Assembly (NCBI GenBank): GCA_024681515.1
Contig: JAILAR010000066.1
Span: 1 to 64,000 of the forward strand
Source: Eubacterium sp.
GTDB taxonomy: Bacteria > Bacillota > Clostridia > Lachnospirales > Lachnospiraceae
Direction of reading: 5' to 3'
Length of the DNA stretch: 64,000 nt
Shown: one piece after another, positions 1,204 to 58,312 of the stretch
How the letters are laid out: every line of letters starts with the position of its first letter
How positions within the stretch are numbered: position 1 is the stretch's first letter
Made by a program: the position numbers and the translations under genes
The notes under the pieces: model-generated
What the model saw: only the letters and a program-made list of their open reading frames with translations
The model's database searches: none
What the model was told of the DNA's origin: nothing

Positions 1204-1318
1204 CCTCCATTCCACACTGCGCAACCTCCGTCGCTCCGTGCAATTATCTCTCCGCACGTGTCATCCGATCATTTGCTTTTTTGTATCGTTCGAGTCCGTG
1301 CTCCGCGATAATTGTCCC
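1204..1318 (-). repeat. Family A intergenic element, near full-length copy
   Basis: In the minus sense it has the GCACGGACTCGAA box, the ACGTGCGGAG box, a GATAATT box, a weak hairpin and a terminal GTGTGGAATGGAGG that serves as the ribosome-binding site of the kinase gene. It fills the gap between response regulator and kinase. Confidence 0.8.
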
Positions 1319-1335
1319 ACACTTCTTACATGGTT

Positions 1336-2004
1336 TCAGATTTCTATCAGCCGGAACGGACCCGTCTCTTCTCCTTCGATGGTCCGGTCAGCGGCGATGG
1401 CTTCCATCTTACTTTTCAGGTAAGAGATATAGATCCACACCACCTTATCATCCGCTTCTTCATCCCGCCATACACTGGCCGTCAGTTCCGCCGCGGTAAA
1501 CGTCTTTCCGGAATTAACGATCAGATATTCCATCAGGCGGGCTTCCTTCTTCGAAAGGCGAATGGAACTGTCCGCACGAAGTTCCTGATCCTCCACATCC
1601 AGGATCAGATTTCCCACCCGAAGTTCCTTCGGACGATACTCCGTGGATCTGCGGGTCAGCGAACGCAGCCGGGCCAGAAGTTCCTCCATCTGAACCGGTT
1701 TGGAAAGATAATCATCCGCTCCCGCATCCAGACCGCTTACCTTGTCTCCCAGCTGGGATTTTGCCGTCAGCATAAGGATCGGCGTGGTATTGCCTTCTGC
1801 CCGAAGTGTTTTCAGGACAGTGATCCCATCCATTTTCGGCATCATGATATCAAAGATGCATGCGTCATAGACATGTTCCCTTGCCGCCTGAAGTGCAGCT
1901 TCCCCGTCATAGACCGCATCCACCTGATAACCACCCTTACGTTCCAGCATTGCGGAATAAGCCCTGGAGAGTGCCTTTTCATCTTCTGCCAATAATAATT
2001 TCAT
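1336..2004 (-). CDS. OmpR-family response regulator
   Basis: DNA-binding partner of the kinase downstream; 222 aa. The receiver domain covers about residues 1-115, with acidic residues at positions 7-9, the phosphorylated Asp at about 52 (FDIMMPKMDG), TAKSQ and the conserved Lys in LSKP. A winged-helix output domain of the Trans_reg_C type follows (LSKKEARLMEYLI ... VWIYISYLKSKM). I chose the ATG at 2004 because MKLLLAEDE is the expected N terminus and GGAGAGGA lies just upstream; a longer reading frame only adds sequence that overlaps the relQ-like gene. The stop of the alarmone synthetase is 26 bp upstream, so the two are probably co-transcribed. Targets are unknown. Confidence 0.94.
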   Translation of the reverse strand: MKLLLAEDEKALSRAYSAMLERKGGYQVDAVYDGEAALQAAREHVYDACIFDIMMPKMDGITVLKTLRAEGNTTPILMLTAKSQLGDKVSGLDAGADDYLSKPVQMEELLARLRSLTRRSTEYRPKELRVGNLILDVEDQELRADSSIRLSKKEARLMEYLIVNSGKTFTAAELTASVWRDEEADDKVVWIYISYLKSKMEAIAADRTIEGEETGPFRLIEI

Positions 2005-2030
2005 ATCGATATATCCTCTCCGACGTCCGC

Positions 2031-2642
2031 TTACGAGTTGCGGATCAGATTTCTGATCGTCTCCATGGACACATCGCAAGCCGCCAGTTCATCGGCGCAG
2101 CGTTTCAGCTCCGCCTCGATCAATGCCTGATTCTTTACGTCCTTTTTATATTTCATCTTGTGTTCCAGGCTGGCCCAGGAATCCATGGCGATAGTCCTGA
2201 GCTGCACTTCCACAAAGAAGTGTCCGGGCACATTTCCTTCCACATCCTCAAAAGCCGTCTCTGCCGCCAGGATCAGATGGTAGCTCCGATATCCGTTGGA
2301 CTTTGCATGGCGGATATAATCCTTCTCCTCCACAACGATAAAACCGGGGAGGCTTCGGATATGTTCCAGAATTCCATAAATATCATCCCGAAACGCACAA
2401 ATGATCCGGATCCCGATGGCATCCTGCATCTCGTGCAGGGCACTGTACGCGGTTTCCGGAAGTCCCTTCCTTCTGCATTTTTCACGCATGCTTTCGTCTG
2501 ACTTGATCCTTGCGGTCAGATGCTCATATACGTGATCTCCCGTTTCCGCAAACCTAAGCTGTTCATAGGATTCCAGTTCCGTCTGAATTCTGGTCATCAC
2601 GTAAGAAAGACGCGGTTCGAATGCTCCGTAAATGCTGCTCAT
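2031..2642 (-). CDS. relQ: Small alarmone synthetase, RelQ/YjbM-like (p)ppGpp synthetase
   Basis: Cytosolic enzyme that transfers pyrophosphate from ATP to GDP or GTP. The 203-aa protein is a lone RelA/SpoT synthetase domain without the HD hydrolase, ACT or TGS domains, the size expected for the RelQ group. Visible family motifs are DAIGIRIIC, the substrate-stacking KSNGYRSYH, the catalytic-strand VEVQLRT and the DSWASLEHK helix. The start codon overlaps the stop of the MarR-type gene by 4 bp (ATGA), so translation is coupled to it. Its place at the end of a fatty-acid operon is noteworthy, because (p)ppGpp is known to be tied to lipid synthesis; here the link would be transcriptional (inference). 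RelP is the alternative subgroup; the C-terminal length fits RelQ better. Confidence 0.9.
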   Translation of the reverse strand: MSSIYGAFEPRLSYVMTRIQTELESYEQLRFAETGDHVYEHLTARIKSDESMREKCRRKGLPETAYSALHEMQDAIGIRIICAFRDDIYGILEHIRSLPGFIVVEEKDYIRHAKSNGYRSYHLILAAETAFEDVEGNVPGHFFVEVQLRTIAMDSWASLEHKMKYKKDVKNQALIEAELKRCADELAACDVSMETIRNLIRNS

Positions 2643-3169
2643 TCCGCGTCCTCCTTCGTTTCATCAACATTTGCGGAGATATCGATCCCCTCCGAGGAAG
2701 GGATCGGTACCTCTGGCATCATTTCCGTGGAGATCTTCCGCATGATGCGGTTAAAAAGTTCAAATTCCTCCGGAGAGAGACTCTTCTCCAGGCGGTCCTC
2801 CACGATGTCCATATACTTCTTGTTGATGTTCCAGTATTTGTAGTATTTATCCGTCACCTGCAGAATGAATTCACGCTTATCCGTTCCGGACTGCACCTTT
2901 TTCAGGTACCCTTTTTTGATCAGGGAGCTCACCTTATAGGTCGCATTCGGTGCGGAAATGTCAATAAAGTCCGCGAATTCATTAATGGTCGGAGTACCTA
3001 ATGCACCGATCACTTCGATGCAGTAGGCTTCCGTTGTTGTAAGTGACAGTTCCCGGCTCTGAATCCTCCTGAAGACATCCCTGTAGTAGTATACACGGAA
3101 CTTCGAATATACTTCATGCAGAGGATTCTGCCTGATATTCTCTGTTGTCGTCTGATCCGGTCCGGACAT
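2639..3169 (-). CDS. fabT: MarR-family regulator, probable FabT-like repressor of the fab operon
   Basis: DNA-binding regulator of 176 aa. A MarR-type winged helix is visible at about residues 40-115: LTTTEAYCIEVIG, the recognition helix around SAPNATYKVSSLIKKGYLKK, and the wing with DKREFILQVTDK. In many Firmicutes a MarR protein in this position (FabT) represses fatty-acid synthesis genes with acyl-ACP as co-repressor; the assignment here rests on family and context. The gene follows fabZ after 41 bp, unlike streptococci where fabT leads the cluster. The C terminus carries an acidic tail of about 30 residues. Candidate operators are the palindromes in front of acpP. The start at 3169 has GGAAAGGGG upstream. 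Confidence 0.85.
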   Translation of the reverse strand: MSGPDQTTTENIRQNPLHEVYSKFRVYYYRDVFRRIQSRELSLTTTEAYCIEVIGALGTPTINEFADFIDISAPNATYKVSSLIKKGYLKKVQSGTDKREFILQVTDKYYKYWNINKKYMDIVEDRLEKSLSPEEFELFNRIMRKISTEMMPEVPIPSSEGIDISANVDETKEDAE

Positions 3170-3210
3170 ACATAACCCCTTTCCTGCTTCGCAGTGTGAA
3201 TCGTGCTCCT

Positions 3211-4881: not shown

Positions 4882-4913
4882 TGTTAATCCTTTCCTGTAT
4901 CTGTCTGTACATT

Positions 4914-5010
4914 ATCATCCTGAGCGGATGCGAAGGATCCCTTCACTGATACTCCGAAAGGATTCTTCGCATGCAGGCTGCGCTGCGCTTGCCTCGCATG
5001 CTCAGAATGA
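4914..5010. repeat. Family B inverted repeat between fabG and fabF
   Basis: The ends TCATCCTGAGCGGATGCGAAGG and, on the other strand, GTCATTCTGAGCATGCGAGG pair into a long imperfect stem. No U-tract follows, so it is not an ordinary terminator. Similar sequences lie at 5791-5831, 6814-6882 and 57165-57199. Confidence 0.7.
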
Positions 5011-5021
5011 CATGCGGTTTG

Positions 5022-5765: not shown

Positions 5766-5790
5766 TCCTTAAACTCCTTGTTTCCTGGTG

Positions 5791-6813: not shown

Positions 6814-6882
6814 TATCAGGATCCTTCGCTTCGCTCAGGATGACAGGATATCGGTATGTCATCCTAAGCAACGCGAAATATC
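6814..6882. repeat. Family B repeat between fabK and fabD
   Basis: Contains GATCCTTCGCTTCGCTCAGG followed by GGATGACA and the inverted TGTCATCC, which together can form a stem-loop. Similar to the copy at 4914-5010. Confidence 0.65.
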
Positions 6883-6891: not shown

Positions 6892-7830
6892 CTACAGCTC
6901 GATAGCTCTCGTCTCTTCCAGCACCTTCTTTGCGCCCTGATACATATCCGCCAGAATATCCGCAAGGGGCCGAACTTCCTTAAGCTGTCCGCAGACCTGA
7001 CCGGCCATCACGGAACCGTTCTTCATATCTCCGTCAAAAACCGCCCTGCGGAGACCGCCAAGTGTGATCTGCTCCAGTTCATCTCTGGAAGCCGCAGCAG
7101 CCTCCAGTTTCAGATATTCCCTGGCCATGGGATTTTTGATGATCCGGACCGGTGCCCCCAGGCTGCGGCCGGTTACGGTCGTACTGTTGTCTCTGGCCTT
7201 AATAAGCTCTGCTTTATAATTATCATGGATCGGGCACTCTTCGGATACCAGAAGGCTCGTTCCGATCTGGATACCCGCCGCACCGAGACACAGTGCCGCG
7301 GCAAACTGGCGTCCGTCAGCGATACCGCCGGCAGCAATGACAGGAATTTCCACACTGTCGATCACCTGCGGAACCAGTGCCATGGTCGTCATATCTCCCA
7401 CATGGCCGCCACTCTCACCGCCTTCGGCGATGACCGCATCCACGCCCTGTTTTTCAACCTTTTTGGCAAGAGCGCAACTGGCAACAACCGGGATCACGAT
7501 TGCTCCGGTCTCTTTCCATTTTTCGATGTATTTTCCGGGTGTTCCCGCACCGGTGGTGATGATCTGAATCTTCTCCCGCGCCAGCAGATCCGCGATATTG
7601 TCCGCATCCGGATTCATCAGCATCAGATTTACACCGAACGGCTTATCCGTAGCTTCTCTGGCATCATGAATTTCTTTTTCCAGCGCCTCCGCCGGCATTC
7701 CGCCGGAAGCGATCAGGCCCAGTGCACCGGCATTGGAAACCGCAGCGGCAAATTTACCCGTGGCGATATTTGCCATACCGCCCTGGATAATGGGATACTT
7801 TATTTCAAGTAATTTATTGATCAATTCCAT
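6892..7830 (-). CDS. fabK: FMN-dependent enoyl-ACP reductase FabK
   Basis: Reduces trans-2-enoyl-ACP using FMN and NAD(P)H; it replaces FabI in this operon. The 312-aa protein belongs to the nitronate monooxygenase-like TIM-barrel family: the N terminus NKLLEIKYPIIQGGMANIAT, PFGVNLMLM, AEGGESGGHVG, IPVIAAGGIADGRQFAAAL and GAAGIQIGTSLLVSEE, which includes the FMN phosphate-binding loop. Fab context separates it from true nitronate monooxygenases. The upstream gap holds a large composite of family A and family C repeats, yet both neighbours are fab/acc genes on the same strand. Confidence 0.95.
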   Translation of the reverse strand: MELINKLLEIKYPIIQGGMANIATGKFAAAVSNAGALGLIASGGMPAEALEKEIHDAREATDKPFGVNLMLMNPDADNIADLLAREKIQIITTGAGTPGKYIEKWKETGAIVIPVVASCALAKKVEKQGVDAVIAEGGESGGHVGDMTTMALVPQVIDSVEIPVIAAGGIADGRQFAAALCLGAAGIQIGTSLLVSEECPIHDNYKAELIKARDNSTTVTGRSLGAPVRIIKNPMAREYLKLEAAAASRDELEQITLGGLRRAVFDGDMKNGSVMAGQVCGQLKEVRPLADILADMYQGAKKVLEETRAIEL

Positions 7831-7850
7831 ATTATGCTCCTCTCTCTGCC

Positions 7851-7956
7851 TTATGAGCCGGCCAAGGAAGCCGGCTCATAACCCTCACTTCGTTCGGGCA
7901 TCACCCTCGGTGATGGGCGCATACGGATTCGATTCTCCTAATGGAGAATCGAATCC
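7851..7956 (-). repeat. Family C modular palindrome, three hairpins
   Basis: Hairpin 1: 12-bp perfect stem, 7-nt loop (7851-7862/7870-7881). Hairpin 2: CATCACC-CTC-GGTGATG (7899-7915). Hairpin 3: 14-bp perfect stem, 4-nt loop (7925-7938/7943-7956). None is followed by a U-tract. It joins directly to a family A copy at 7957. Confidence 0.85.
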
Positions 7957-8063
7957 TATTCCATACTTCGCGCCTTCCGGCGCTCCGTGAAATCATCACT
8001 CCGCACGTGTTTACTGATTATATGCTTTACTCTTTTATTCGAGGCCGTGCTACGTTCTGATTT
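7957..8063 (-). repeat. Family A intergenic element, full-length copy
   Basis: Minus-sense order: ATCAGAACGTAGCACGG, CTCGAAT, ACGTGCGGAGTGATGATT, ACGGAGCGCC-GGAA-GGCGC hairpin, GAAGTATGGAATAGG. It starts at the accA stop codon. Here the family C module is inserted between the element's end and the fabK start. Confidence 0.85.
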
Positions 8064-8990
8064 TTACTTTCTTACCAGCTTGTCGATATTCCGGAACTTC
8101 TCATATCTGGACCGGGCGATCTCCGCCGGAGAATTTCTCTTCATGGCATTGAATTCCTTCACCAGCATCCGGTCGATGGACTTGAACACCTCGTCCGGAT
8201 TATGGTGTGCGCCGCAGGGCGGTTCAGGGATGATCCCGTCGATCACACCGAATTTATACAGATCCTGCGCCGTCAGTTTCATCAGATCACAGGCCTCTGC
8301 CGCACGTGAGGAATCCTTCCAGAGGATCGATGCGAAGCCTTCCGGAGAAAGCACGGAATATACCGCATGCTCCAGCATATAAACTTTATTTGCAACACCA
8401 ATGGCAAGGGCTCCTCCGGAGCTGCCTTCCCCTGTTACAATTGAGAAAATGGGCGTCTTGATCGCACTCATTTCCGCAAGATTCTTCGCAATGGCGTTAC
8501 TCTGTCCGTGCTCCTCCGCTTCCAGTCCCGGATATGCGCCCGGTGTGTCGATAAATGTAATGATCGGCCGCCCGAACTTTTCCGCCTGCTTCATCATACG
8601 AAGCGCCTTCCGATAGCCTTCCGGTTCCGGCATACCGAAATTGTACTTCATGTTCTCGTTGATATTTTTACCCTTCCGATGTCCCAGAACCGTTACGGGG
8701 ATACCATGGAACATGGCGATCCCACCGTAAATGCTCTGGTCTTCCTTTGACAGAAAGTCTCCTCTCTGTACAAAAAAATCCGAGAACAATGCATTGATAT
8801 AATCATCGATCTTCGGGCGATGCCTGTGCCGCGCCAGATACACGTTGTCATGTGCGGTTAACGTCTCGCACTGTTTGCAAAGAGCCGCATATTCCTGCGT
8901 CAGCGCAGCGGCGTACTCGTCCGAAAGACCGTCTTGTTTTCGTTCTTCCTCGATGGCCGTCATCCGCTCATCGATCTCTCTGATGGTCAT
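8064..8990 (-). CDS. accA: Acetyl-CoA carboxylase carboxyltransferase, alpha subunit
   Basis: Alpha half of the carboxyltransferase that makes malonyl-CoA from carboxybiotin and acetyl-CoA. The 308-aa protein has the crotonase-type fold: PRIDDYINALF-like start, MPEPEGYRKALRMMKQAEKF, PIITFIDTPGAYPG, VTGEGSSGGALAIGVANKV and YSVLSPEGFASILWKD, all typical of AccA. Its start overlaps the accD stop by 4 bp (ATGA). The biotin carrier (accB) and biotin carboxylase (accC) genes that usually accompany it are absent from this window and must be elsewhere. Confidence 0.96.
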   Translation of the reverse strand: MTIREIDERMTAIEEERKQDGLSDEYAAALTQEYAALCKQCETLTAHDNVYLARHRHRPKIDDYINALFSDFFVQRGDFLSKEDQSIYGGIAMFHGIPVTVLGHRKGKNINENMKYNFGMPEPEGYRKALRMMKQAEKFGRPIITFIDTPGAYPGLEAEEHGQSNAIAKNLAEMSAIKTPIFSIVTGEGSSGGALAIGVANKVYMLEHAVYSVLSPEGFASILWKDSSRAAEACDLMKLTAQDLYKFGVIDGIIPEPPCGAHHNPDEVFKSIDRMLVKEFNAMKRNSPAEIARSRYEKFRNIDKLVRK

Positions 8991-17576: not shown

Positions 17577-17587
17577 ATATAAGCTCC

Positions 17588-17612
17588 TATTCCACTCTTC
17601 GTGTTTCCCAGC
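17588..17612 (-). repeat. Family A terminal box fused to a family C module
   Basis: The minus sense reads AAACACGAAGAGTGGAATAGGAG just before the xth start, the same ending as other family A copies. The upstream part is replaced by the palindromes at 17613-17735. Confidence 0.7.
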
Positions 17613-17735
17613 CTTTGTGACCGCCTATTGTGGGCGGTCACAAATCCTCCCTTCGGTCGGACACCAACACCTTCGGTGTTGGTGGGCGCAGGCACAGGAA
17701 ACGGGTAGCGGATCGCTACCCGTTCATTATCGTGC
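17613..17735 (-). repeat. Family C modular palindrome, three hairpins
   Basis: Hairpin 1: 12-bp stem, 7-nt loop (17614-17625/17633-17644). Hairpin 2: 10-bp stem closed by a UUCG-type loop (17662-17684). Hairpin 3: 11-bp stem, 3-nt loop (17700-17710/17714-17724). Module order matches 7851-7956, but the stem sequences of hairpins 1 and 3 are unrelated to it. Confidence 0.85.
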
Positions 17736-19659: not shown

Positions 19660-19673
19660 TTTTCGCCCCTCCG

Positions 19674-19720
19674 ATTCCACACTTTGCGCCATAGCGCTCC
19701 GTGGATTATCACTTCTTCTA
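19674..19720 (-). repeat. Family A intergenic element, shortened copy
   Basis: In the minus sense GATAATCCACGGAGCGC, a TATG loop, GGCGCAAAGTGTGGAATCGGAGG and then the start of the membrane protein gene. The 5' box is missing. Confidence 0.75.
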
Positions 19721-19781
19721 TCATACTATTTTCACAGTTTTCGGTCAATTAAAAAATGCCCCTGCGGGGCATTTTTATGGG

Positions 19782-22334: not shown

Positions 22335-22440
22335 CTATTCTATTCCATACTGCGCGCCTAAGGCGCTCCGTACATCATCACTTCGCACGTATTTATCATC
22401 AATACGCTTTACAACATCATTTGAGTCCGTGATTCACCAT
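22335..22440 (-). repeat. Family A intergenic element, near full-length copy
   Basis: In the minus sense: CACGGACTCAAATGATGTTG, TAAAGCG, ACGTGCGAAGTGATGATG, ACGGAGCGCC-TTA-GGCGC hairpin and CAGTATGGAATAG. It lies upstream of tgt. Confidence 0.85.
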
Positions 22441-22520
22441 ATGCTGTTCTATCATACGCCTGAATCTGTCAGAATGCAATCCCACCGGACAGGAACCAAG
22501 CCCTGCTTTCCTCAACGCAA

Positions 22521-25675: not shown

Positions 25676-25803
25676 AACACGGACTTGAATGATGTTGCAC
25701 GGCGAATTAACGATAATTCGACCGAAGGGATACTTTGTGACCGTCCACAATAGGCGGTCACAAATGCCATGAAACACGAAGTGTTAAATAAATAAGAAAC
25801 GAC
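25676..25803 (+). repeat. Composite family A/C element between exporter genes
   Basis: Plus-sense order: CACGGACTTGAATGATGTTG (18 of 20 bases match the copy upstream of tgt), a 7-bp hairpin with 4-nt loop (25703-25720), ACCGAAGGGA, a 12-bp stem with 7-nt loop and one G-U pair (25734-25745/25753-25764), then AAACACGAAGTGTT. It is the only clear plus-strand copy and its downstream gene is also on the plus strand. Confidence 0.8.
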
Positions 25804-34014: not shown

Positions 34015-34028
34015 TTCTTTTATATCTC

Positions 34029-34062
34029 CTGTTCCATACTTCATGTTTTTCGGTGCTCCGTC
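34029..34062 (-). repeat. Family A element, degenerate short copy
   Basis: Minus sense: GATATGACGGAGCACCG, decayed hairpin, CATGAAGTATGGAACAGGAG. It gives the ribosome-binding site of the UPF0340 gene and overlaps the stop of the gene upstream. Confidence 0.65.
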
Positions 34063-34618
34063 ATATCATCCGGCTCATCAGCAGTGTTCCGTTCTCATTC
34101 AGCCATTTGTCCCATTTCTTATAGTCCGGATACACGCGCTGTACTTCCGCGTAAAATGCTTTCGAATGGTTCATATGCTTTCTGTGGCAAAGCTCGTGCA
34201 CCACCACCCCATCCAGGACTTCCGGCGGTGCCAGCATCAGAAGGCAGTTGAAATTCAGGTTTCCCTTTCCGGTGCAGCTGCCCCATTTAGACCGTTGATT
34301 CCGGATCGTGATCCTGCCGTAAGTCACTCCCACCAGAGGCGCATAATGCCTTACGCGTTCGGGGATCACTTTCATCGCTTTGTCCGCCAGCTCCCGGATC
34401 TCATCCATGGTAAGTTTCGGAAGGGCGTCGGTCTTTGCCTTTAGTTCTTCAGCTTTTTTCAGATGTTTTTCGATCCAATCCAGATGTTCCCGGATGAATC
34501 CGTCGATATCTGCCTGCGTAGCCTGCATAGGCGCTCGGACGATCACACCTTCCGGACGGATCTCCAGTCCGATGGTCCGCCGCTTACTGCGGATCAGTTT
34601 ATATTTCAAACTTTCCAT
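34061..34618 (-). CDS. YgjP-like zinc metallopeptidase (M48/SprT-related)
   Basis: A 185-aa cytosolic protein of the YgjP (DUF45) family. The zinc site VVHELCHRKHMNHSKAFY gives HExxH and the third ligand His in NHSKAF. Upstream it has SKRRTIGLEIRPEGVIVRAP and NQRSKWGSCTGKGNLNFN, both family hallmarks. Substrate unknown. The start is immediately after a family A element whose end, GTGTGGAATAA, provides only a weak ribosome-binding site. Confidence 0.92.
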   Translation of the reverse strand: MESLKYKLIRSKRRTIGLEIRPEGVIVRAPMQATQADIDGFIREHLDWIEKHLKKAEELKAKTDALPKLTMDEIRELADKAMKVIPERVRHYAPLVGVTYGRITIRNQRSKWGSCTGKGNLNFNCLLMLAPPEVLDGVVVHELCHRKHMNHSKAFYAEVQRVYPDYKKWDKWLNENGTLLMSRMI

Positions 34619-34620
34619 AT

Positions 34621-34696
34621 TTATTCCACACTTTGCACGTTTTTTCTGATTGTCCGCTTTACTCTGTTATTCGAGTCCGTGCTACGTTCTGATTTC
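34621..34696 (-). repeat. Family A element lacking the central GCGCC hairpin
   Basis: Minus sense: ATCAGAACGTAGCACGGACT, CGAATAACAGAGTAAAGCG, ACGTGCAAAGTGTGGAATAA. The 5' half is nearly identical to the copy at 7957-8063; the GATAATT box and the GNRA hairpin are missing. It begins at the stop of the IMPACT gene. Confidence 0.8.
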
Positions 34697-35305
34697 TCAC
34701 CCGATATACATGTCTCCGATCTGCAGATCTGCCTTCCCGGCCGTTGCTTCCGTAATGTCCTTGGTCAGCTTTGCCACCTGCTCTTCCGGCACCTCTGCGG
34801 TCAGTATGATCTGCTCCTGATAATCCGTTGCCGGTTCCAGTCCTGCCTCTCGAAAAAGATACTGTACCCGGCCCAGATCCGTATACTGTACGGTACATGT
34901 CACGGTCCTTCGCGGCCGGATCTCCGTAACCTTGCTGTTCTTTACGGCTTCTTTGGCAGCTTCCGTATAAGCCCGCACCAGTCCGCCGGTTCCCAGAAGG
35001 GTTCCACCGAAATATCTGGTCACTACCACCAGCGCACCTGTCAGTCCCTCACCGGTGAGCACATCCAGCATGGGCTTTCCGGCTGTCTGACTGGGTTCTC
35101 CGTCATCGGAAAATTTTTCCGCACCCACCAGACGCCAGGCATAGCAATTATGCCGGGCATCGTAATATTTCTTACGAATCCCGGCAATCCGCTCTGCGGC
35201 TTCTTCGGCCGTCTCGATCGGAAATGTGATTCCCAGAAATCTGGATTTTTTCACGATCACCTCGGAAGTCCCACCCTCGATCAGTTTGAACACTTTCTCT
35301 GCCAT
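34697..35305 (-). CDS. IMPACT/YigZ family protein
   Basis: A 202-aa protein of the YigZ group. The UPF0029 N-terminal domain has SRFLGITFPIETAEEA, ARHNCYAWRLV, SDDGEPSQTAGKPMLDVL and VVVTRYFGGTLLGTGGLVRAY; a DUF1949 C-terminal domain follows. The eukaryotic relative IMPACT acts in translation control and bacterial YigZ has been linked to translation or peptidase functions; the exact role is unsettled. It is encoded 44 bp after nrdR. Confidence 0.94.
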   Translation of the reverse strand: MAEKVFKLIEGGTSEVIVKKSRFLGITFPIETAEEAAERIAGIRKKYYDARHNCYAWRLVGAEKFSDDGEPSQTAGKPMLDVLTGEGLTGALVVVTRYFGGTLLGTGGLVRAYTEAAKEAVKNSKVTEIRPRRTVTCTVQYTDLGRVQYLFREAGLEPATDYQEQIILTAEVPEEQVAKLTKDITEATAGKADLQIGDMYIG

Positions 35306-42497: not shown

Positions 42498-42851
42498 TCA
42501 CTCCACCTCTATCACAAGTTGATGCGGCAGACAGATGATCGTCTCCCCGACGGTATCGATGGCACTGTGGTGTACGCAGACCCGCTCAGGGCAGTCAGCG
42601 GAGATAACGCTGACTTTTCCGTCTTTGATCTGAACCACATTCCATCCGTCTCCGGAGTAAAACCTCTGCTCCATATCCTCATCCAGCGGCAGCGTGATCC
42701 GTGTTTTATCCGCATCAGTGATCACCACTTTTTTCCCCGCGGGGCTCAGAAAATGCACCGCTGCCCAGATGGCTCCGCATAGGGCCAAGACCCCAAGCAG
42801 CAGAAGGAAATCTCCTTTTTTCAGTTTTCCACCCTGCCGCTTATCTTCCAT
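42498..42851 (-). CDS. NusG domain II-containing protein
   Basis: A 117-aa protein with one N-terminal membrane segment (FLLLLGVLALCGAIWAAVHFL) and an extracytoplasmic NusG-II-like beta domain (WNVVQIKDGKVSVISADCPERVCVHHSAI in parts, ending CLPHQLVIEVE). The CPERVCVHHG-type motif and CLPH ending are diagnostic. It is a companion of the Gx gene and of apbE. Its start overlaps the glgX stop by 11 bp. Function unknown; the Cys residues could be redox-active. Confidence 0.93.
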   Translation of the reverse strand: MEDKRQGGKLKKGDFLLLLGVLALCGAIWAAVHFLSPAGKKVVITDADKTRITLPLDEDMEQRFYSGDGWNVVQIKDGKVSVISADCPERVCVHHSAIDTVGETIICLPHQLVIEVE

Positions 42852-44922: not shown

Positions 44923-44931
44923 TGGCGACTC

Positions 44932-45035
44932 CTATTCCATACTTCGCGCCTAAAGCGCTCCGTAGATTATCGCTTCGCATGTATGTACAGATTTTTTACT
45001 TTTCTCCTCTGGTTCGAGTCCATGCTTTGCGATAA
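44932..45035 (-). repeat. Family A element with compensatory stem change
   Basis: Minus sense: GATTATCGCAAAGCATGGAC, TCGAACC, ACATGCGAAGCGATAATC, ACGGAGCGC-hairpin, GAAGTATGGAATAGGAG. The outer stem is GCATG/CATGC here, whereas other copies have GCACG/CGTGC. Confidence 0.85.
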
Positions 45036-46166
45036 TCACTTCAGTTCATGCCACGCGTCCTTCAGTCCGTCCGTTACAGAGATGCTTCCGTCTTCGCGGA
45101 TAAAGACTGCTTCCGCGTGATAATATGCCAGCAGTTCCTCAGTGTCATCCTCTCCGAGAATAAAGAGCGCGGTGGAAAGTCCGTCGCTGACCAGCCCGTT
45201 CTCGCACACCACAGTTACGGATTTAAGACCGCTGTCCGCCGGCTTCAGTGTCCGTGGATCAATGATATGATGATACCGAACTCCGTCTTTCTCAATATAT
45301 TTCTCATATCCGCCGGAGGTGGATACACAGATCCGGCCGGCTCCGGGTGAGAGTGTGAGCGTTCCAAGGATGTCATCCGGCTGACCTTCGGGATCCCGGA
45401 CACCTACCTGAAAGCTACCTCCTTCCGGCTTGCTTCCGAATACCATCACGCTTCCGCCTACAGCAAGCACCCCGCCGGTAACCGTGCTTTCCCTGCCGCT
45501 TCTCAGTTCATTCACATTAAAATCCGGTGCTGAATGATCTCCCAGCGTCAGGAAGTCGTAAGCAATATCCAGGGCATACCCCTTACCGACAGCGCCCAGA
45601 TCCAGTATGATATCCTCGTGTCCTCTGGACATTTCCTTCTCTTCGGCATAGATCTCCCACATTCCGAAGTGCTCCGCGGCAGCCTCGAGCTCCTCTTTCG
45701 TGGGTACCTGAAATGTTCCCGGATCTCCGGATTCGATCCCCCAGACATCCAGCAGCGGACGGATCGTCAGATCCAGCACATATCCGCTTTTTTCCCAGAG
45801 AAGTATACCGCTGCTTACCGCCTTGCAGAGCATGTTACTGATCTGTACCTTTTCCCCTTCCTTTGCGGTCCGGTTCCACTTTGCCAGTTCCGAATTATCT
45901 GACCGCCAGGAGATCACATTTTCGTCCAGATCCCGGATCTTCTCCATGAGCTTTTGAGACACCGATTCCAGCTGATCTGTCTCTCCGTACAGCGTAACGG
46001 ACAAAGCACTTCCCATGGCAAAATCCCGCATTGTCAGGCTGTTCCCGGATCCATCCTTTTCCGATGCGCCATCTCCCCGCGTCAGGATCGCAACAACGAT
46101 CAGCACGGCTGCCGCGGCCGCCATGGCCAGGATCCCCAGGACGCGTTTCACGGTATCATTTTTCAC
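45036..46166 (-). CDS. apbE: FAD:protein FMN transferase ApbE
   Basis: Attaches FMN covalently to Thr residues, in this genome probably to RnfD and RnfG. The 376-aa protein has an N-terminal membrane/signal segment (VLGILAMAAAAAVLIVVAIL), FAMGSALSVTLYG, DENVISWRSDNSELAKWN, LDLTIRPLLDVWG, the metal/FAD motif DLGAVGKGYALDIA, GGVLAVGGSVMVFGSK, STSGGYEKY, HHIIDPRTLKP and VSDGLSTALFILG. I place the start at the GTG at 46166, preceded by GGAGGCAAAGG; a longer frame runs antisense-like into the Nudix gene. It overlaps the Nudix stop by 11 bp. Confidence 0.95.
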   Translation of the reverse strand: MKNDTVKRVLGILAMAAAAAVLIVVAILTRGDGASEKDGSGNSLTMRDFAMGSALSVTLYGETDQLESVSQKLMEKIRDLDENVISWRSDNSELAKWNRTAKEGEKVQISNMLCKAVSSGILLWEKSGYVLDLTIRPLLDVWGIESGDPGTFQVPTKEELEAAAEHFGMWEIYAEEKEMSRGHEDIILDLGAVGKGYALDIAYDFLTLGDHSAPDFNVNELRSGRESTVTGGVLAVGGSVMVFGSKPEGGSFQVGVRDPEGQPDDILGTLTLSPGAGRICVSTSGGYEKYIEKDGVRYHHIIDPRTLKPADSGLKSVTVVCENGLVSDGLSTALFILGEDDTEELLAYYHAEAVFIREDGSISVTDGLKDAWHELK

Positions 46167-46713: not shown

Positions 46714-46725
46714 ACATCCGGTCTC

Positions 46726-46746
46726 CTATTCCATATTTTGTGCTGA
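46726..46746 (-). repeat. Family A terminal box only
   Basis: Minus sense CACAAAATATGGAATAGGAG directly before the Nudix start. Only the final ribosome-binding-site box of the family is left. Confidence 0.5.
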
Positions 46747-46998
46747 CTATCTGTTCCGTTTTCTCCGGTCTTTCTCGGGATGATCACGGTAATACGCCGC
46801 TTTATCCGCGTACATGGTTTCATCTGCCACTTTGATCGCCGCCGGAAGATCATATTCTCCCACACAATATGCGGTTCCTACAGCGAAGCTGACATCCGGG
46901 GTGTTATCTGCCAGTCCACGAAGCTGCTGCACCCGAAGGTCCAGCTGCTCCTTTGCGATTTCCGGGCAGAATACCATGAATTCATCTCCGCCTTTCAC
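46747..46998 (-). pseudogene. Remnant of a GGDEF domain, cut at the GGDEF motif
   Basis: The 83-aa frame begins, after a GTG, with KGGDEFMVFCPEIA and continues through VSFAVGTAYC and AIKVADETMYADKAAYY, which is the C-terminal half of a GGDEF domain. The first half, including the substrate-binding N-terminal part, is missing: a stop codon and then family A sequence lie directly upstream, and only 27 bp separate it from the ABC-F gene. An inactive fragment. Translation could also begin at the ATG after GGDEF. Confidence 0.8.
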
Positions 46999-47025
46999 AC
47001 TTCACACTGATGCGCGTTCCGTAAA
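46999..47025 (-). repeat. Degenerate family A element at the break point of a GGDEF gene
   Basis: Minus sense GATAATTTACGGAACGCGC followed by CAGTGTGAAGTGTGAAAGG. It lies exactly where the upstream half of the GGDEF gene is lost. Confidence 0.6.
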
Positions 47026-48987
47026 TTATCCCAGTTCCTCTATCTCTTCATACCATGCCAGAAGCTGCTCTTCCAGCTCCTGCTGGCGTATGGTAAGCTC
47101 TGTCAGCAGCGTTGCATTGGTTCCGTTCTCCGGCAGGTTCAGCTGACGGTCGACCTCCTCCAGTTCCTCCTCTGCTTCCGATATCTTTTTTTCCAGCTTC
47201 CGCTTATCGCTGGCACGCTTCCGCTCCGCAGCATAGGCTTCCTTCCGCTTCAGGTACTCCTCCTTGCTGTTTCCGGAGTTTTCCTTTGCGAAGGCCGCCG
47301 TGGATACGATGGAGAACCCGTCCCGCGTCGTGGTCTGTGCCGTATCCGCATTGGGATTGTCCGCATTCTGCAGCTGGAACAGCCGCTCCCGGTTTTCCTC
47401 ATAATCGTCGTAGTTCCCCGGATAATTCGTCAGCACTTTATGCCGGAGCTCCAGGATCCGTGTTGCCGTGCGATTGATGAAATACCGGTCATGGCTGACG
47501 TACAGGACCGTTCCGGTATAATCGCGGATGGCATCCTCCAGGATCTCCTTCGACTGGATATCCAGATGATTGGTGGGCTCATCGAGAAGCAGCAGATTCG
47601 CCGGTGACAGCATCAGCTTTGCCAGAGACAGCCGTCCCCGCTCCCCACCGGAGAGGTCGGCGATCTTCTGGAACACCTTGTCTCCCGTAAAGAGAAATGC
47701 CGCCAGTGTGTTTCGGATGCGTGTGTTATTCATGTCCGGGAAAGCGTCAGACATTTCATCAAAGAGTGTCTTCTCCGGATCCAGATCCTGATTTTCCTGA
47801 TCGAAATATCCCATGCGGACCCTGGCTCCCAGCGTCACGGTTCCCGCATCCTTAGCCAGTTTCCGCGCCAGGATTTTGAGAAGTGTCGTCTTCCCGGTTC
47901 CGTTTCCGCCGATCAGCGCTACATGCTCACCGCGTTTGATATCGATCCCCAGTTCCTGGAAGAGCAGGTTGTCGCCGTAGGCTTTTTTCAGATGCTCCGC
48001 AAAGAGTACATCCTCTCCGGATTCCGTTACCGGCGTCAGCGTAAGACGCATATCTGCCCGCAGCTCTTCGGGTTTCTCGATGCGGTCGATCCGATCCAGC
48101 ATCTTCTCCCGGCTTTCCGCCCGTTTAATGGATTTCTCACGGTTAAAGGATTTCAGCTTTCGGATCACATCTTCTTCATGAGCGATCTCCGCCTGCTGGT
48201 TCAGATATGCTTTCAGTTCGTCCTGACGCTTCTTCTCCCGCTTCTCACGATAGAAGGAATAGTTTCCTCGATACAGCGTCGACTTTCCGAATTCGATCTC
48301 CAGAATCTGATTCGACACACGGTCGATAAAATACCGGTCATGGCTGACCACGATCACCGCTCCGGAGTATCCGGCCAGGAATCCCTCCAGCCAGGTGATG
48401 CTGCTCATATCAAGATGGTTCGTTGGCTCGTCCAGAAGGATCACATCCGGTCGGGAAAGCAGCAGCCGTCCCAGTGCGATCCGCATCTTCTGCCCTCCGG
48501 ACAGAGAGTTGATATCCCGGTCATAATCACTTTCCGCAAATCCCAGGCCCTTTAAGACACCTGTGATCTCACTCTCATAAGCGTAGCCGTTCTCATGATC
48601 ATACCGGGTCGACAGACGGTTGTAGGTCTCCAGGATCTTTGAGAGTTCCTCACCCTCCGCGTGCTTCATTTCCGCTTCCAGTTCCCGGAGCCGTCGTTCC
48701 ATATCGATCAGGTACTGCTTGGCCTGCTCCATCTCCTGATAGACCGTATTGTCGAAGGAGATGTCCTGGTGCTGCGACAGATACCCTATGCGGATATCCC
48801 TCGCACGGACTACCTGTCCGTTATCCGCCTCCTCCTCGCCCAGAATGATCCGAAGCAGGGTCGTCTTCCCCGCACCGTTCACACCGACGATGGCCAGCTT
48901 ATCATGTTCCTCTATATGAAAATTTATGCTTTTAAGTATTTCGACATCTCCAAAGGATTTGGAAATGTTCTGACATGCAAGTATCAT
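47026..48987 (-). CDS. ABC-F family ATPase
   Basis: Soluble duplicated ATPase of the ABC-F group, which acts on ribosomes (EttA-, Uup- or YdiF-like). The 653-aa protein has two nucleotide-binding domains: Walker A GVNGAGKTT and GGNGTGKTT, signatures LSGGQKMR and LSGGERGRLS, and two Walker B motifs (ILLDEPTNHLDMSS, LLLDEPTNHLDIQS). The linker with two helices lies at about residues 240-310, and a C-terminal coiled coil (KLEKKISEAEEELEEVDRQL) resembles that of Uup/YdiF. No membrane domain, so not a transporter. Resistance function is not indicated. Confidence 0.94.
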   Translation of the reverse strand: MILACQNISKSFGDVEILKSINFHIEEHDKLAIVGVNGAGKTTLLRIILGEEEADNGQVVRARDIRIGYLSQHQDISFDNTVYQEMEQAKQYLIDMERRLRELEAEMKHAEGEELSKILETYNRLSTRYDHENGYAYESEITGVLKGLGFAESDYDRDINSLSGGQKMRIALGRLLLSRPDVILLDEPTNHLDMSSITWLEGFLAGYSGAVIVVSHDRYFIDRVSNQILEIEFGKSTLYRGNYSFYREKREKKRQDELKAYLNQQAEIAHEEDVIRKLKSFNREKSIKRAESREKMLDRIDRIEKPEELRADMRLTLTPVTESGEDVLFAEHLKKAYGDNLLFQELGIDIKRGEHVALIGGNGTGKTTLLKILARKLAKDAGTVTLGARVRMGYFDQENQDLDPEKTLFDEMSDAFPDMNNTRIRNTLAAFLFTGDKVFQKIADLSGGERGRLSLAKLMLSPANLLLLDEPTNHLDIQSKEILEDAIRDYTGTVLYVSHDRYFINRTATRILELRHKVLTNYPGNYDDYEENRERLFQLQNADNPNADTAQTTTRDGFSIVSTAAFAKENSGNSKEEYLKRKEAYAAERKRASDKRKLEKKISEAEEELEEVDRQLNLPENGTNATLLTELTIRQQELEEQLLAWYEEIEELG

Positions 48988-52620: not shown

Positions 52621-52695
52621 ATTCCATACTACTCCATACTTCGCACGCCAGCGTGCTCCGTGAACGATCACATCGCACGTATTATACGCTACGTA
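52621..52695 (-). repeat. Family A element with a compensatory change in the central hairpin
   Basis: Minus sense: ACGTAGCG-like start, ACGTGCGATGTGATCGTTC, ACGGAGCACG-CTGG-CGTGC, GAAGTATGGAGTAGTATGG. The hairpin is GCACG/CGTGC instead of GCGCC/GGCGC in the other copies, with base pairing kept. Confidence 0.8.
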
Positions 52696-52741
52696 ATGAT
52701 ATTATATCTGATTTCAGGCACTTTTTCCACCGTATTTCATA

Positions 52742-55201: not shown

Positions 55202-55231
55202 TCTGTTCCTCTGTCGTATGTACACGAAATA

Positions 55232-56509
55232 TCAGACACCGGCCTCATCGATGGCCTTACCGATATCGTGACGCATATATTTATTGTCAAACTGTACCCA
55301 TTCCGTTGCAGCATAGGCATTGGCACGTGCCTCCGGAAGTGTATCTCCCAGCGCCGTTACGCCAAGCACGCGGCCACCGTTTGTTACAACCTTTCCGTCT
55401 TTCAGCTTGCTTCCGGAATGGAATGCATAATAACCGTCTCTGGTTTGGAACCGTTCCAGACCTTTGATCTCAAAGCCCTTCTCATAATGTACCGGGTATC
55501 CCTCCGACGCCAGCATGACACAGACTGCCGCATTGTCTTCAAACTGAAGATCGATCTGATCCAGTGTTCCGTTCACACAGGCTTCCATCACCGTCAGCAT
55601 ATCATTCTTCATCCGCGGGATCACAACCTGTGCCTCCGGATCTCCGAACCGTGCATTGAATTCCAGCACCTTCGGACCATCCGCCGTAAGCATCAGTCCG
55701 CAGAACAGCACGCCCTTGAACTCTCTGCCCTCTGCGCGCATGGCATCGATAGTCTTCTGGTACACATGCTTCTTGCAGAACCGATCCACTTCCTCTGTAT
55801 AAAATGGACTGGGTGAAAATGTACCCATGCCACCGGTATTCAGTCCGGTATCTCCGTCTCCGGCACGTTTGTGATCCTGTGCAGAAGTCATGGGAAGGAT
55901 GGTCTTTCCGTCGGAGAAACAGAGCACGGACACTTCGCGTCCGGTCATAAACTCCTCAATGACGATCTTGTCGCCGGCGCTTCCGAACTGTTTATCTACC
56001 ATAAGTGTCTTCACGCCTTCCACAGCTTCCTCTCTGGTCATACAGATCAGAACGCCCTTCCCCAGCGCCAGGCCGTCAGCCTTCAGTACGATGGGGATCT
56101 TTGCGGTCTTCAGATATTCCAGTGCAGCTTCCGGGTCATCAAATACCTCATACGCTGCCGAAGGAATGTCGTATTTCTTCATCAGTTCCTTGGAGAACGC
56201 CTTGGAAGCCTCGATGATGGCTGCATTCTTTCTGGGGCCGAAGGTCGGGAACCCGGCATCCAGAAAAGCATCTGCCACGCCGGCCGCCAGCGGATCATCC
56301 GGTCCTACGACCACGAAGTCCACTTCCTTCTCCTTTGCAAACGCCACGAGTTTTTCCGCATCCATCACGGAAATGTCAACGCACTCCGCAAGTTCGCCGA
56401 TACCTGCATTTCCGGGTGCTGCATAGATCTTGTCTACCCGCGGGCTTTTGGAAATCGCCCATGTGATGGCGTGTTCACGTCCGCCGCCGCCTACGATCAT
56501 AACCTTCAT
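55232..56509 (-). CDS. purD: Phosphoribosylamine-glycine ligase
   Basis: ATP-grasp enzyme that makes GAR from phosphoribosylamine and glycine in purine synthesis. The 425-aa protein has MKVMIVGGGGREHAI, FVVVGPDDPLAAGVAD, FGPRKNAAIIEASKAFSKELM, VLKADGLALGKGV, EEFMTGREVSVLCF and EFNARFGDPEAQVV. It is the third of three purine genes in the order purM-purN-purD. Confidence 0.97.
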   Translation of the reverse strand: MKVMIVGGGGREHAITWAISKSPRVDKIYAAPGNAGIGELAECVDISVMDAEKLVAFAKEKEVDFVVVGPDDPLAAGVADAFLDAGFPTFGPRKNAAIIEASKAFSKELMKKYDIPSAAYEVFDDPEAALEYLKTAKIPIVLKADGLALGKGVLICMTREEAVEGVKTLMVDKQFGSAGDKIVIEEFMTGREVSVLCFSDGKTILPMTSAQDHKRAGDGDTGLNTGGMGTFSPSPFYTEEVDRFCKKHVYQKTIDAMRAEGREFKGVLFCGLMLTADGPKVLEFNARFGDPEAQVVIPRMKNDMLTVMEACVNGTLDQIDLQFEDNAAVCVMLASEGYPVHYEKGFEIKGLERFQTRDGYYAFHSGSKLKDGKVVTNGGRVLGVTALGDTLPEARANAYAATEWVQFDNKYMRHDIGKAIDEAGV

Positions 56510-56552
56510 GTTTTATTCTCCTCTGATATTATTTCGATGATTATTATTTTGA

Positions 56553-57149
56553 TCACTTGATCTTCCCGGTCGCGATATCGTTGATCGCCTGCGGGAGCAG
56601 TTTCCACTCTGCCTCTTCCATGATCCGCCTCTGCAGTGTCTGCGGCGTATCATCCGGGCGGACCTCCACTGCCTTCTGCAGAAGGATCGGCCCGGTATCC
56701 GTACCGCTGTCCACAAAATGGACGGTAGCTCCGGAGACCTTAACGCCTCTGGCAAGAGCTGCTTCGTGCACCTTCAGACCATAGTATCCGGTTCCACAGA
56801 AAGACGGGATCAGGGACGGATGGATGTTGATGATCCTCCGTTCGTACTTTTCGATCATTTCCGGCGGGATCACTACCAGGAAGCCCGCCAGAACGATAAG
56901 GTCCGGCCGGTAAGCATCCACAGCCGTCAGAAACGCCTTGTGAAATGCAGCACGATCCGGGTAGTCCTTCGGACTGACCACTTCTGCCGGGATTTCGGCT
57001 CTCTTTGCACGTTCCAGTGCAAAAACACCCGGATTATTGCTGATGACACCCACCAGCTCCGTATTCTGAACGGTTCCGGCAGCAACCGCATCAATGATCG
57101 CCTGCAGGTTGGTACCTCCGCCGGACACCAGAACTAATACTTTAAGCAT
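56553..57149 (-). CDS. purN: Phosphoribosylglycinamide formyltransferase
   Basis: Transfers a formyl group from 10-formyl-THF to GAR. The 198-aa protein has VLVSGGGTNLQAIIDA, the catalytic Asn-His in IINIHPSLIPSFCG, and the catalytic Asp in HFVDSGTDTGPILLQK. All three residues are present. GAGGATAGATT precedes the ATG at 57149. It follows purM after an 83-bp gap with a family B copy. Confidence 0.97.
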   Translation of the reverse strand: MLKVLVLVSGGGTNLQAIIDAVAAGTVQNTELVGVISNNPGVFALERAKRAEIPAEVVSPKDYPDRAAFHKAFLTAVDAYRPDLIVLAGFLVVIPPEMIEKYERRIINIHPSLIPSFCGTGYYGLKVHEAALARGVKVSGATVHFVDSGTDTGPILLQKAVEVRPDDTPQTLQRRIMEEAEWKLLPQAINDIATGKIK

Positions 57150-57164
57150 AATCTATCCTCTTTT

Positions 57165-57199
57165 CAGAATTCTTCGCCCCTTCGGGCTCAGAATGACAA
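57165..57199. repeat. Family B repeat between purM and purN
   Basis: CAGAATTCTTCGCCCC, TTCGGGCTCAGAATGACA. The same CTCAGAATGACA end occurs at 4914-5010. Confidence 0.65.
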
Positions 57200-57232
57200 T
57201 CCATGATTAATAAACGATTCCTTTACAGCCGA

Positions 57233-58258
57233 TTATACAAGGATCACACCCTGATCGGATGCAACGGTCTCACCGATGATGTAACCCGTATCTCCTGCCT
57301 CTTTCAAAGCTGCAAGGGTTTTGTCCGCATCCTCGGAGCGAACAGCCAGCACCATACCGATACCCATGTTATAGGTATTGTACATCACCTGTTCTTCCAC
57401 CTTGCCCTCGCGTGCCATCATCCGGAAGATCGCGGGAACCTCGTAGCTGTCCTTCCGTACCTGCGCAGCGATTCCCTTCGGAAGCATCCGCGGAATATTC
57501 TCATAGAAACCACCGCCGGTAATGTGGCTGGTTCCCTTAATGGTCACACCGGCTTCCTTCACCTTCTTCAACGCATTAACGTAGATCCGGGTCGGGGTCA
57601 GAAGCGTTCCACCCAAAGTACCTCCCAGCTCCGGAACGTACCGGCTGAGGGACTTCTCTGACATATCAAAGATCTTCCGTACCAGAGAGAAACCATTAGA
57701 GTGAACACCGCTGGAGGCGATACCGATGAGCGTATCTCCGGGTACGATGGACGCGCCCGTGATCATTTCCTTTCTCTCAACCACGCCGACTGCAAAGCCG
57801 GCCAGATCATATTCATTTTCTTCCATCAGACCCGGATGCTCTGCCGTCTCACCACCGATGAGCGCTGCACCTGCCTGACGGCAACCCTCCGCTACACCGC
57901 TGACGATGGTAGCGATCTTCTCCGGGAAATTCTTACCACAAGCGATATAATCCAGGAAGAACAACGGTTCTCCGCCGGAGCATGCGATATCATTTACACA
58001 CATGGCCACTGCATCGATTCCGATGGTGTCATGCTTATCCATAACGAAAGCAAGCTTCACCTTGGTACCGCATCCATCGGTTCCGGACAGCAGAACAGGT
58101 TCCTCCATATTCTTGATCCTGGACAGATCAAAGGCGCCGGCAAATCCGCCGATCCCTCCCAGCACTTCCGCTCGCTGCGTTTTTTTGATGTGCTCCTTCA
58201 TCAGCTCCACTGACTTGTACCCTGCTTCGATATCTACTCCCGAGTTTTTGTAATCCAT
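57233..58258 (-). CDS. purM: Phosphoribosylformylglycinamidine cyclo-ligase
   Basis: Closes the imidazole ring to form AIR in purine synthesis. The 341-aa protein has DYKNSGVDIEAGYKSVELM, LLSGTDGCGTKVKLAF, AMCVNDIACSGGEPLFFLDY, ALIGGETAEHPG, GIASSGVHSNGFSLVRK and THITGGGFYENIPRML-like residues (SHITGGGFYENI). I place the start at the ATG at 58258, with GGAGGAACAG before it; a longer frame reads through a repeat. A sigma-A promoter is seen at 58329-58357. Confidence 0.97.
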   Translation of the reverse strand: MDYKNSGVDIEAGYKSVELMKEHIKKTQRAEVLGGIGGFAGAFDLSRIKNMEEPVLLSGTDGCGTKVKLAFVMDKHDTIGIDAVAMCVNDIACSGGEPLFFLDYIACGKNFPEKIATIVSGVAEGCRQAGAALIGGETAEHPGLMEENEYDLAGFAVGVVERKEMITGASIVPGDTLIGIASSGVHSNGFSLVRKIFDMSEKSLSRYVPELGGTLGGTLLTPTRIYVNALKKVKEAGVTIKGTSHITGGGFYENIPRMLPKGIAAQVRKDSYEVPAIFRMMAREGKVEEQVMYNTYNMGIGMVLAVRSEDADKTLAALKEAGDTGYIIGETVASDQGVILV

Positions 58259-58275
58259 CTGTTCCTCCTTAATTA

Positions 58276-58312
58276 ATAACTTCGCGCCTTTCGGCGCTCC
58301 GTGAATTACTAA
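58276..58312 (-). repeat. Family A element in the purM leader
   Basis: Minus sense GTAATTCACGGAGCGCC-GAAA-GGCGC-GAAGTTATTAATTAAGGAGG. Central GNRA hairpin intact, terminal box altered, 5' box missing. It lies between the purM promoter and start, so it is transcribed. Confidence 0.75.

What the first reader, a model, noticed from the sequence alone, without database searches (positions are those of the whole stretch)
1204..58312. Family A: a repeated, orientation-locked leader element with two covarying stems
Copies, by position: 1204, 7957, 17588, 19674, 22335, 25676, 34029, 34621, 44932, 46726, 46999, 52621 and 58276. In transcript sense the full form is GCACGGACTCGAA, about 35-45 variable nt, ACGTGCGAAGTGATAATT, ACGGAGCGCC-GNRA-GGCGC, GAAGTATGGAATAGGAG, then the start codon. 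All 13 have the same orientation as the gene just downstream, and the last box usually supplies its Shine-Dalgarno. Two stems covary: the outer GCACG/CGTGC becomes GCATG/CATGC at 44932, and the hairpin GCGCC/GGCGC becomes GCACG/CGTGC at 52621. Most copies lie between co-directional genes, and the purM copy lies inside the leader downstream of the promoter. This suggests a structured RNA, perhaps a translation control, processing or stability element, or a mobile repeat that carries its own ribosome-binding site. The outer pairing and orientation bias are seen; the function is inference.
Basis: partly seen in the sequence, partly recalled or inferred. Interest (0 to 1): 0.75.

Follow-up and report, generated by a model that had tools for sequence, protein, structure and literature searches.

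The report
Hairpin repeats docked at ribosome-binding sites
One bacterium carries about 150 copies of a short repeat whose transcript should fold into two hairpins, which points the same way as the next gene and often ends exactly at that gene's ribosome-binding site; it looks like a mobile repeat that has spread in this species, and what it does for the genes, if anything, is not known.

Summary
A covariance model from 20 full copies (four of them in the window) matches 11 of the 13 listed places at E<=0.051, 8 at E<=2.4e-5, 4 in full form. The own genome holds 149 matches (E<=0.1; a floor) on 56 contigs. Pairing is kept by compensatory change. Downstream DNA codes on the element's strand in 92 copies, the other in 1, unclear in 34 of 127. 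The 3' end GGAAT is followed at once by a Shine-Dalgarno-like (SD) pentamer in 66 of 127 (strict list 52). At 14 of 18 sites resolved in sister species the element is absent; at 9 of these a relative has its own SD at a similar distance (by eye), so the SD is probably native, not carried. Copies are 3'-anchored, 5'-variable and sometimes tandem, and content differs even between near-identical flanks. Among 61 genomes of the genus only this one shows the expansion. No Rfam, REP-transposase, reverse-transcriptase or CsrA match. Best reading: a BOX/REP-like repeat docked at the SD; regulation unproven, mobilising enzyme unknown.

The parts
1204..1317 (-). full copy (hairpin 1 + hairpin 2 + box) before a histidine kinase gene
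   Evidence: R1 103.2 bits, E 6.2e-26; kinase domains; absent at the orthologous site in G017, G002, G036
7953..8066 (-). full copy, followed by a second repeat and then the nitronate monooxygenase-like gene
   Evidence: R1 111.4 bits; sequence; Pfam
22337..22448 (-). full copy before the queuine tRNA-ribosyltransferase gene
   Evidence: R1 92.1 bits; Pfam; no relative with both flanks
44929..45041 (-). full copy; G017 and G036 have only a gap of 22-25 nt between the aligned flanks
   Evidence: R1 112.6 bits; empty sites
34598..34698 (-). hairpin-1 form without hairpin 2, ending GTGTGGAATAAATATG with no clear SD
   Evidence: R1 45.5 bits; in G019 the stop and start codons overlap
52626..52705 (-). 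5'-shortened copy; hairpin 2 stem GCACG/CGTGC; followed by GGAATGGAGGATACA
   Evidence: R1 43.4 bits; absent in 4 relatives, G019 shares GGAGGATACA
19669..19732 (-). 5'-truncated copy keeping the 3' arm of hairpin 1, then hairpin 2, box and GGAGGGG
   Evidence: R1 41.4 bits; G019, G017 and G036 have GGAGGGG without the full element
58267..58362 (-). hairpin 2 only; box degenerate (GAAGTTATTAATTAAGGAGG)
   Evidence: R1 26.8 bits, E 2.4e-5; sequence
34026..34060 (-). degenerate hairpin 2 + box + AGGAG
   Evidence: R1 19 bits, E 0.003 over 34026-34145; sequence
17584..17646 (-). box and SD joined to a different hairpin repeat (TTTGTGACCGCC...)
   Evidence: R1 16.8 bits, E 0.012
46987..47049 (-). 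weak, degenerate copy
   Evidence: R1 14.5 bits, E 0.051
46723..46739 (-). box + AGGAG only
   Evidence: 2 mismatches to the box; not found by R1
25677..25800 (+). mosaic: left motif ACACGGACTTGAA plus the TTTGTGACCG hairpin repeat before an ABC-2-type transporter gene
   Evidence: 2 mismatches; not found by R1; sequence; Pfam

Best explanation
A non-autonomous interspersed repeat (BOX/REP-like in life style) has multiplied in one Lachnospiraceae species to about 150 or more copies, which by position should be transcribed as parts of mRNA leaders. In about half the copies its fixed 3' end lies directly on a Shine-Dalgarno that is probably the host gene's own, so translation should survive; its 5' end is variable and tandem units occur. 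Shown by computation: copy number, covariation, orientation lock, SD adjacency, absence in sister species, graded 5' length, different content between near-identical flanks. Inferred: that it moves or is rewritten by copying between copies (template switching or conversion) with a factor encoded elsewhere; that docking at the SD is insertion preference and/or the only tolerated place; and that the hairpins are at least harmless and may shield the downstream cistron's 5' end.
For: Copies: 149 R1 matches in the own genome on 56 contigs. Structure: cells with both-side changes 46 vs 14.5 shuffled and <=8 slid; 148 vs 41 shuffled and <=35 slid on 57 copies in an alignment fitted to the model; G-T versus A-C mismatches in stems 54:27 in 71 copies (p 0.0036, copies not independent), favouring the sense strand. 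Orientation: 92:1, with 34 unclear, of 127. SD-like pentamers per offset after GGAAT: strict list 28 of 59 full and 24 of 68 short copies at offset 0, 12 and 12 at offset 1, 0-3 at each further offset up to 30. Element absent at 14 of 14 resolved sites, 18 tried. Burst: 143 box hits here versus 4-23 in 60 other genomes of the genus, whose reversed-pattern control is 6-27. 3'-anchored truncation. Content differs between near-identical flanks across species while the sequence after the 3' end is kept (3 of 14 relatives' copies could be compared). Mixed downstream functions.
Against: No mobilising enzyme was found, and no target-site duplication or terminal inverted repeat was seen, so movement is inferred from comparison only. 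Among 59 full copies only one pair on different contigs is nearly identical (96%; median 70%), so a very recent burst is not shown. Compensatory changes at diverged copies also fit selection for a leader function. 15 of 59 full and 25 of 68 short copies have no SD-like motif within 14 nt, partly because another copy or another repeat follows. That relatives have SDs near their starts is expected of any gene; shared SD strings were read at two sites only. The truncation measure is rough: its control scores reach 8.0, and some full copies also score as short.
Confidence: 0.62

Rival explanations
1. A cis-regulatory or mRNA-stability RNA element kept by selection: hairpins directly upstream of the SD protect the downstream cistron from 5' exonucleases or bind a protein, and the many copies form a large post-transcriptional regulon.
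For: Covariation maintained at 70% median identity; GGA/GAA internal loop in 45 of 55 hairpin-2 copies parsed out of 59 full copies; sense orientation 92:1; full copies raise predicted SD openness over element-removed flanks (0.571 vs 0.441, p 0.004, n=29).
Against: No significant effect against shuffled elements (0.571 vs 0.538, p 0.21), nor for short copies (0.434 vs 0.442 removed, p 0.53, vs 0.509 shuffled, p 0.11, n=27); downstream genes mixed; absent from sister species at the same genes; CsrA absent in 5 of 5 genomes searched.
Confidence: 0.2
2. A REP/REPIN-type single-stranded DNA element moved by a Y1 transposase (RAYT or IS200/IS605 family), with hairpins as transposase sites and the SD complement (CTCCT) as target.
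For: Hairpins close to a fixed end next to a short motif, no duplication seen, orientation set by the target (reasoning from recalled IS200/IS605 biology); REP-like GTCATCCTGAAC repeats in sister species.
Against: The own genome (97% complete) has only one contig-end fragment of a Y1 transposase, which looks IS200-like, with no element in the 1.6 kb held beside it; G017, G036 and G019 have none; tandem units are direct, not alternating.
Confidence: 0.1
3. 5'-truncated retro-insertions primed at the target, as in target-primed reverse transcription.
For: Fixed 3' end, graded 5' length, sense orientation.
Against: No RVT_1 match in the own genome; erosion or deletion gives the same pattern.
Confidence: 0.04
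4. Ordinary leader features (terminator hairpins and good SDs) that look alike by chance.
For: SD consensus is common.
Against: Box counts 20-fold over control and specific to one genome of 61; covariance-model E down to 9.4e-29; no U-run after hairpin 2 in the copies read.
Confidence: 0.01

Closest known systems
BOX elements of Streptococcus pneumoniae (PMC3049150, passages seen, including parts of the abstract)
   Same: Modular, tandem-prone interspersed repeat, predicted stem-loops when transcribed, judged parasitic by the authors, low transposition rate, clusters with other repeats
   Different: BOX has boxA/boxB/boxC modules and terminal inverted repeats resembling an insertion sequence; here no such terminal repeats, and orientation is locked to the downstream gene with the 3' end often at the SD. 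Sequences were not compared.
REP elements with RAYT transposases (PMC2817692 passages seen; REPINs, PMC3116915, listing only)
   Same: >100 extragenic hairpin copies per genome
   Different: REPs occur in inverted or alternating arrangements and with a RAYT gene flanked by REPs; neither is found here
ERIC and Correia repeats (PMC2229807 and PMC3049150, passages seen)
   Same: Small repeats inside transcripts whose RNA folds can change mRNA stability
   Different: Small repeats of this class are described as mostly MITE-like with terminal repeats, TA ends and target duplications; none of these was seen here, and the SD-adjacent position is not mentioned in the passages seen
Generic bacterial MITEs (PMC10969869, two passages seen)
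   Same: Short, non-autonomous, repeated
   Different: No terminal inverted repeats across the unit, no related autonomous element found

Membership tests
REP/RAYT | Own RAYT (Y1) gene flanked by the repeats | tested here: not met
   Only one Y1 fragment at a contig end in a 97%-complete genome; looks IS200-like by eye; no element in the 1.6 kb held beside it
REP/RAYT | Inverted or alternating repeat pairs | tested here: not met
   Adjacent copies listed are direct repeats (e.g. on C5, C182, C191, C2, C165)
MITE | Terminal inverted repeats across the element | tested here: not met
   The 5' end pairs with an internal arm; the 3' box has no partner in the structure
MITE | Target-site duplication | tested here: inconclusive
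   None seen by eye at empty sites, but flanks are mostly 70-85% identical
BOX | Sequence homology to boxA/B/C | not tested
   BOX sequences were not fetched
Known Rfam RNA families | Covariance-model match | tested here: not met
   No match at gathering score nor at E<=1 in the window
CsrA/RsmA-controlled leader | CsrA gene present | tested here: not met
   0 of 5 genomes; 3 of 14 control genomes ring
Retro-inserted element | Reverse transcriptase in the genome | tested here: not met
   No RVT_1 match in G000; G002 has three

The most novel reading that the evidence does not exclude
A mobile repeat whose integration site is the Shine-Dalgarno itself: the machinery, or a template switch primed at AGGAG, docks the element's GGAAT end on the SD, so it colonises leaders genome-wide without stopping translation, and its content is then rewritten far faster than the flanking genes.
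Probability: 0.25. Interest if true: 0.85.

Novelty: new variant of a known kind. Interest (0 to 1): 0.57.

Why it matters
Small interspersed repeats are usually thought to survive where they do no harm. This one often ends in a translation-sensitive spot, in one orientation, as a foldable RNA. It offers natural pairs of loci with and without the element in sister species (14 resolved here, more to be had) for testing whether such repeats are neutral, are targeted to ribosome-binding sites, or have been recruited as leader RNAs, and for finding how repeats without a visible transposase spread.

Tried and rejected
Rfam: nothing in the window, at gathering score or at E<=1. Phage carriage: 0 matches in the viral collection with two exact patterns. 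Genome collection scan: one stringent pattern matched only three contigs of one uncultured Lachnospiraceae MAG (CAMPAX01) plus one contig each of a Gemmataceae and a Bacteroidales MAG that look like chance; the tool may leave out the window's own genome there. CsrA titration: no csrA. RAYT/IS200 and reverse transcriptase. SD sequestration or insulation: weak, mixed folding result. The naive test 'a start codon within 30 nt' (144 of 179) was poor, since random positions pass in 1696 of 3580 trials and the opposite strand in 45 of 179; the distance peak (103 of 144 at 5-12 nt) and the coding-strand test replaced it. Greedy ORF calling put 64 of 127 elements 'inside' genes because starts were over-extended, and was dropped. 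Deletion by recombination between two copies at L119 versus G019 was checked and is not clearly supported. Of the 68 short copies, at least four (window near 42639; L040, L093, L125) look like chance matches inside genes; they were not removed from the counts (without them offset-0 SD-like is 33 of 64). Literature searches listed no paper that by title or abstract start describes such an element; one search was for the GA loop. Only the open-access library was searched, and PMC8040213 (candidate structured RNAs of human microbiomes) was seen only in a listing.
Full report
Setting. The window is G000:C62:1-64000 of a 3.13-Mb, 197-contig assembly, 97% complete, 4.6% contamination. Its closest element-bearing relative in the collection, G019, matches by two contig numbers and lengths the MAG CAMPAX01, 'uncultured Lachnospiraceae bacterium'. 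The organism itself is unnamed here.

What is there. From the listed copies and 30 fetched loci I aligned 20 full copies. A box like GAAGTATGGAAT also often precedes hairpin 1 (by eye). That GGA/GAA loops form stacked sheared G-A pairs is recalled, not tested.

Covariation. On the 20 copies, 13 of 22 pairs have a change on both sides; 46 such cells against a shuffled mean of 14.5 (0 of 500 reach it) and at most 8 when partners are slid. On 57 model matches, 20 of 22 pairs and 148 cells against 41 shuffled and at most 35 slid (that alignment was fitted to the model). In the stems of 71 copies G-T exceeds A-C 54 to 27, as expected if the sense strand is the one that folds (p 0.0036, copies not independent). 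Neither control is tree-aware.

Number and distribution. R1 gives 149 matches at E<=0.1 in the own genome, where only 150 of 1087 candidates were scored. Over fetched stretches I kept 179 non-redundant hits at E<=1. In 60 other genomes of the genus the box count is 4-23 with a reversed control of 6-27, against 143 versus 7 here; G019 has 17 versus 7. R1 finds 10 matches in G019, 5 in G017, 3 in G036 and 2 in G002 at E<=0.01, one weak, probably chance hit in G022 (E 0.006), none in three further genus genomes under the laxer filters, and none in the 24 genomes of other families under the stricter ones. So a few hairpin-2 copies may be older in the genus, and the full form expanded in this species.

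Place and direction. I collected 190 box-like places without asking for an SD: 59 full, 68 with hairpin 2 only (at least four of them chance matches inside genes), 63 box only (many of the last are chance or 5' boxes; left out of the counts below). For the 127, a codon-usage score of the 180 nt downstream gave the same strand in 92, the opposite in 1, unclear in 34; just upstream 47, 2 and 78. With a loose list of ten SD-like pentamers, one starts exactly after GGAAT in 33 of 59 and 33 of 68. With AGGAG/GGAGG/GGGAG only, 28 and 24 at offset 0, 12 and 12 at offset 1, and 0-3 at each later offset up to 30. 15 and 25 have no SD-like motif within 14 nt. Start codons follow the modelled 3' end at 5-12 nt in 103 of the 144 (of 179) that have one within 30 nt.

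Empty sites. Using syntenic DNA, mostly 70-85% identical, from G017, G036, G002 and G019, 14 of 18 element sites had both flanks in at least one relative (four sites, 46723, 46987, 22337 and L223:1592, had none). No relative showed hairpin 1 plus hairpin 2 there by eye; two G019 sites (7953 and 19669) hold short box-like stretches. At 44929 G017 has TAAAGGAGGTTGACCATG where G000 has stop codon + element + AGGAG. At nine sites (1204, 19669, 44929, 52626, L222:1426, 3530 and 18447, L223:9305 and 18567) at least one element-free relative has an SD-like motif within about 4 nt of the same distance from the start; at 19669 GGAGGGG and at 52626 GGAGGATACA (G019) are shared. So the SD is probably the gene's own. 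I cannot exclude that an element-borne SD replaced it at some sites, and genes are expected to have SDs anyway.

Truncation and turnover. Short copies keep a graded length of hairpin 1's 3' arm: the 3' end is fixed and the 5' end varies. The measure is rough, since random control scores reach 8.0 and indels make some full copies look short. Of 14 relatives' copies compared with the G000 stretches held, 3 lie in segments almost identical to G000 (96-99% on both sides in G019:C196 and G019:C74; 98% upstream and 85% downstream in G017:C116), above the identities seen elsewhere, so they were probably exchanged between species. In these the element content differs strongly (two tandem units versus one truncated unit; different stems), while the sequence right after the 3' end is kept (AGAAAGGAGG; CAATCATAGG). 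In the G019:C74 case the two flanks lie about 3.5 kb apart in G000, so only the downstream junction is comparable. Between full copies in the genome the median identity is 70%; one pair on different contigs is 96% identical.

Function. Genes examined are mixed: 9 genes downstream of listed window copies (its tenth protein, a response regulator, lies upstream of the 1204 copy) all have Pfam matches, and 18 of 20 genes behind full copies do at 1e-8 (20 of the 44 with an open frame of 100 aa or more), with no shared theme. Predicted SD openness: full copies 0.571, element removed 0.441 (p 0.004), element shuffled 0.538 (p 0.21), n=29; short copies 0.434, 0.442 and 0.509, n=27, no significant difference. 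So neither masking nor a specific opening of the SD is supported. No U-run follows hairpin 2 in the copies read, so it is not an intrinsic terminator.

Mechanism. No REP-type Y1 transposase, no reverse transcriptase and no CsrA were found in this 97%-complete genome. The commitment is to a selfish, RNA-structured interspersed repeat docked at the native SD, spread and rewritten by copying between copies with an unidentified factor. A leader-stabilising role is the main rival, and the two can both be true.

Noticed in passing
window 7830-7952 (-): A second hairpin repeat (TCGATTCTCC..., then a GCCGGC hairpin) lies between the 7953 copy and its gene; related DNA occurs as a tandem array of about 113-nt units in G002:C1:2052353-2052983.
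   Followed up: no
window 6820-6845: A 26-base stretch matched at many places in all four relatives, including an array in G002 near 1962294-1962825 with mostly 46-base steps.
   Followed up: no
L223:4895-4989: A repeat of about 95 nt with more than 20 listed matches in G019, many 94-98% identical, also in G002 and G036.
   Followed up: no
window 17620-17690 and about 25740-25790: A different hairpin repeat, TTTGTGACCGCC...GGCGGTCACAAA, precedes a box-like end and a start codon at both places.
   Followed up: partly
G036 at the sites orthologous to L223:9305 and L223:18567; G017 at the latter: REP-like GTCATCCTGAAC-hairpin-GAAGGATC (or GTCATTCTGG...) repeats sit in the same leaders of sister species.
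   Followed up: no
L140, L143, L134, L163: A hairpin-1 variant with another loop (GCGCGAAACTGATAACC...GTAAGCGC or similar) before the same hairpin 2 and box.
   Followed up: no
L137 near 1254-1312 and L075: Short tandem arrays of hairpin 2 plus box, with stems that change in step (GCGC/GCGC versus GCAC/GTGC).
   Followed up: no
L035, L119, L099 versus G019:C196, G019:C74, G017:C116: Flanks 96-99% identical between species (one flank 85%) where other compared segments are mostly 70-85%: probably recent exchange of genes.
   Followed up: partly
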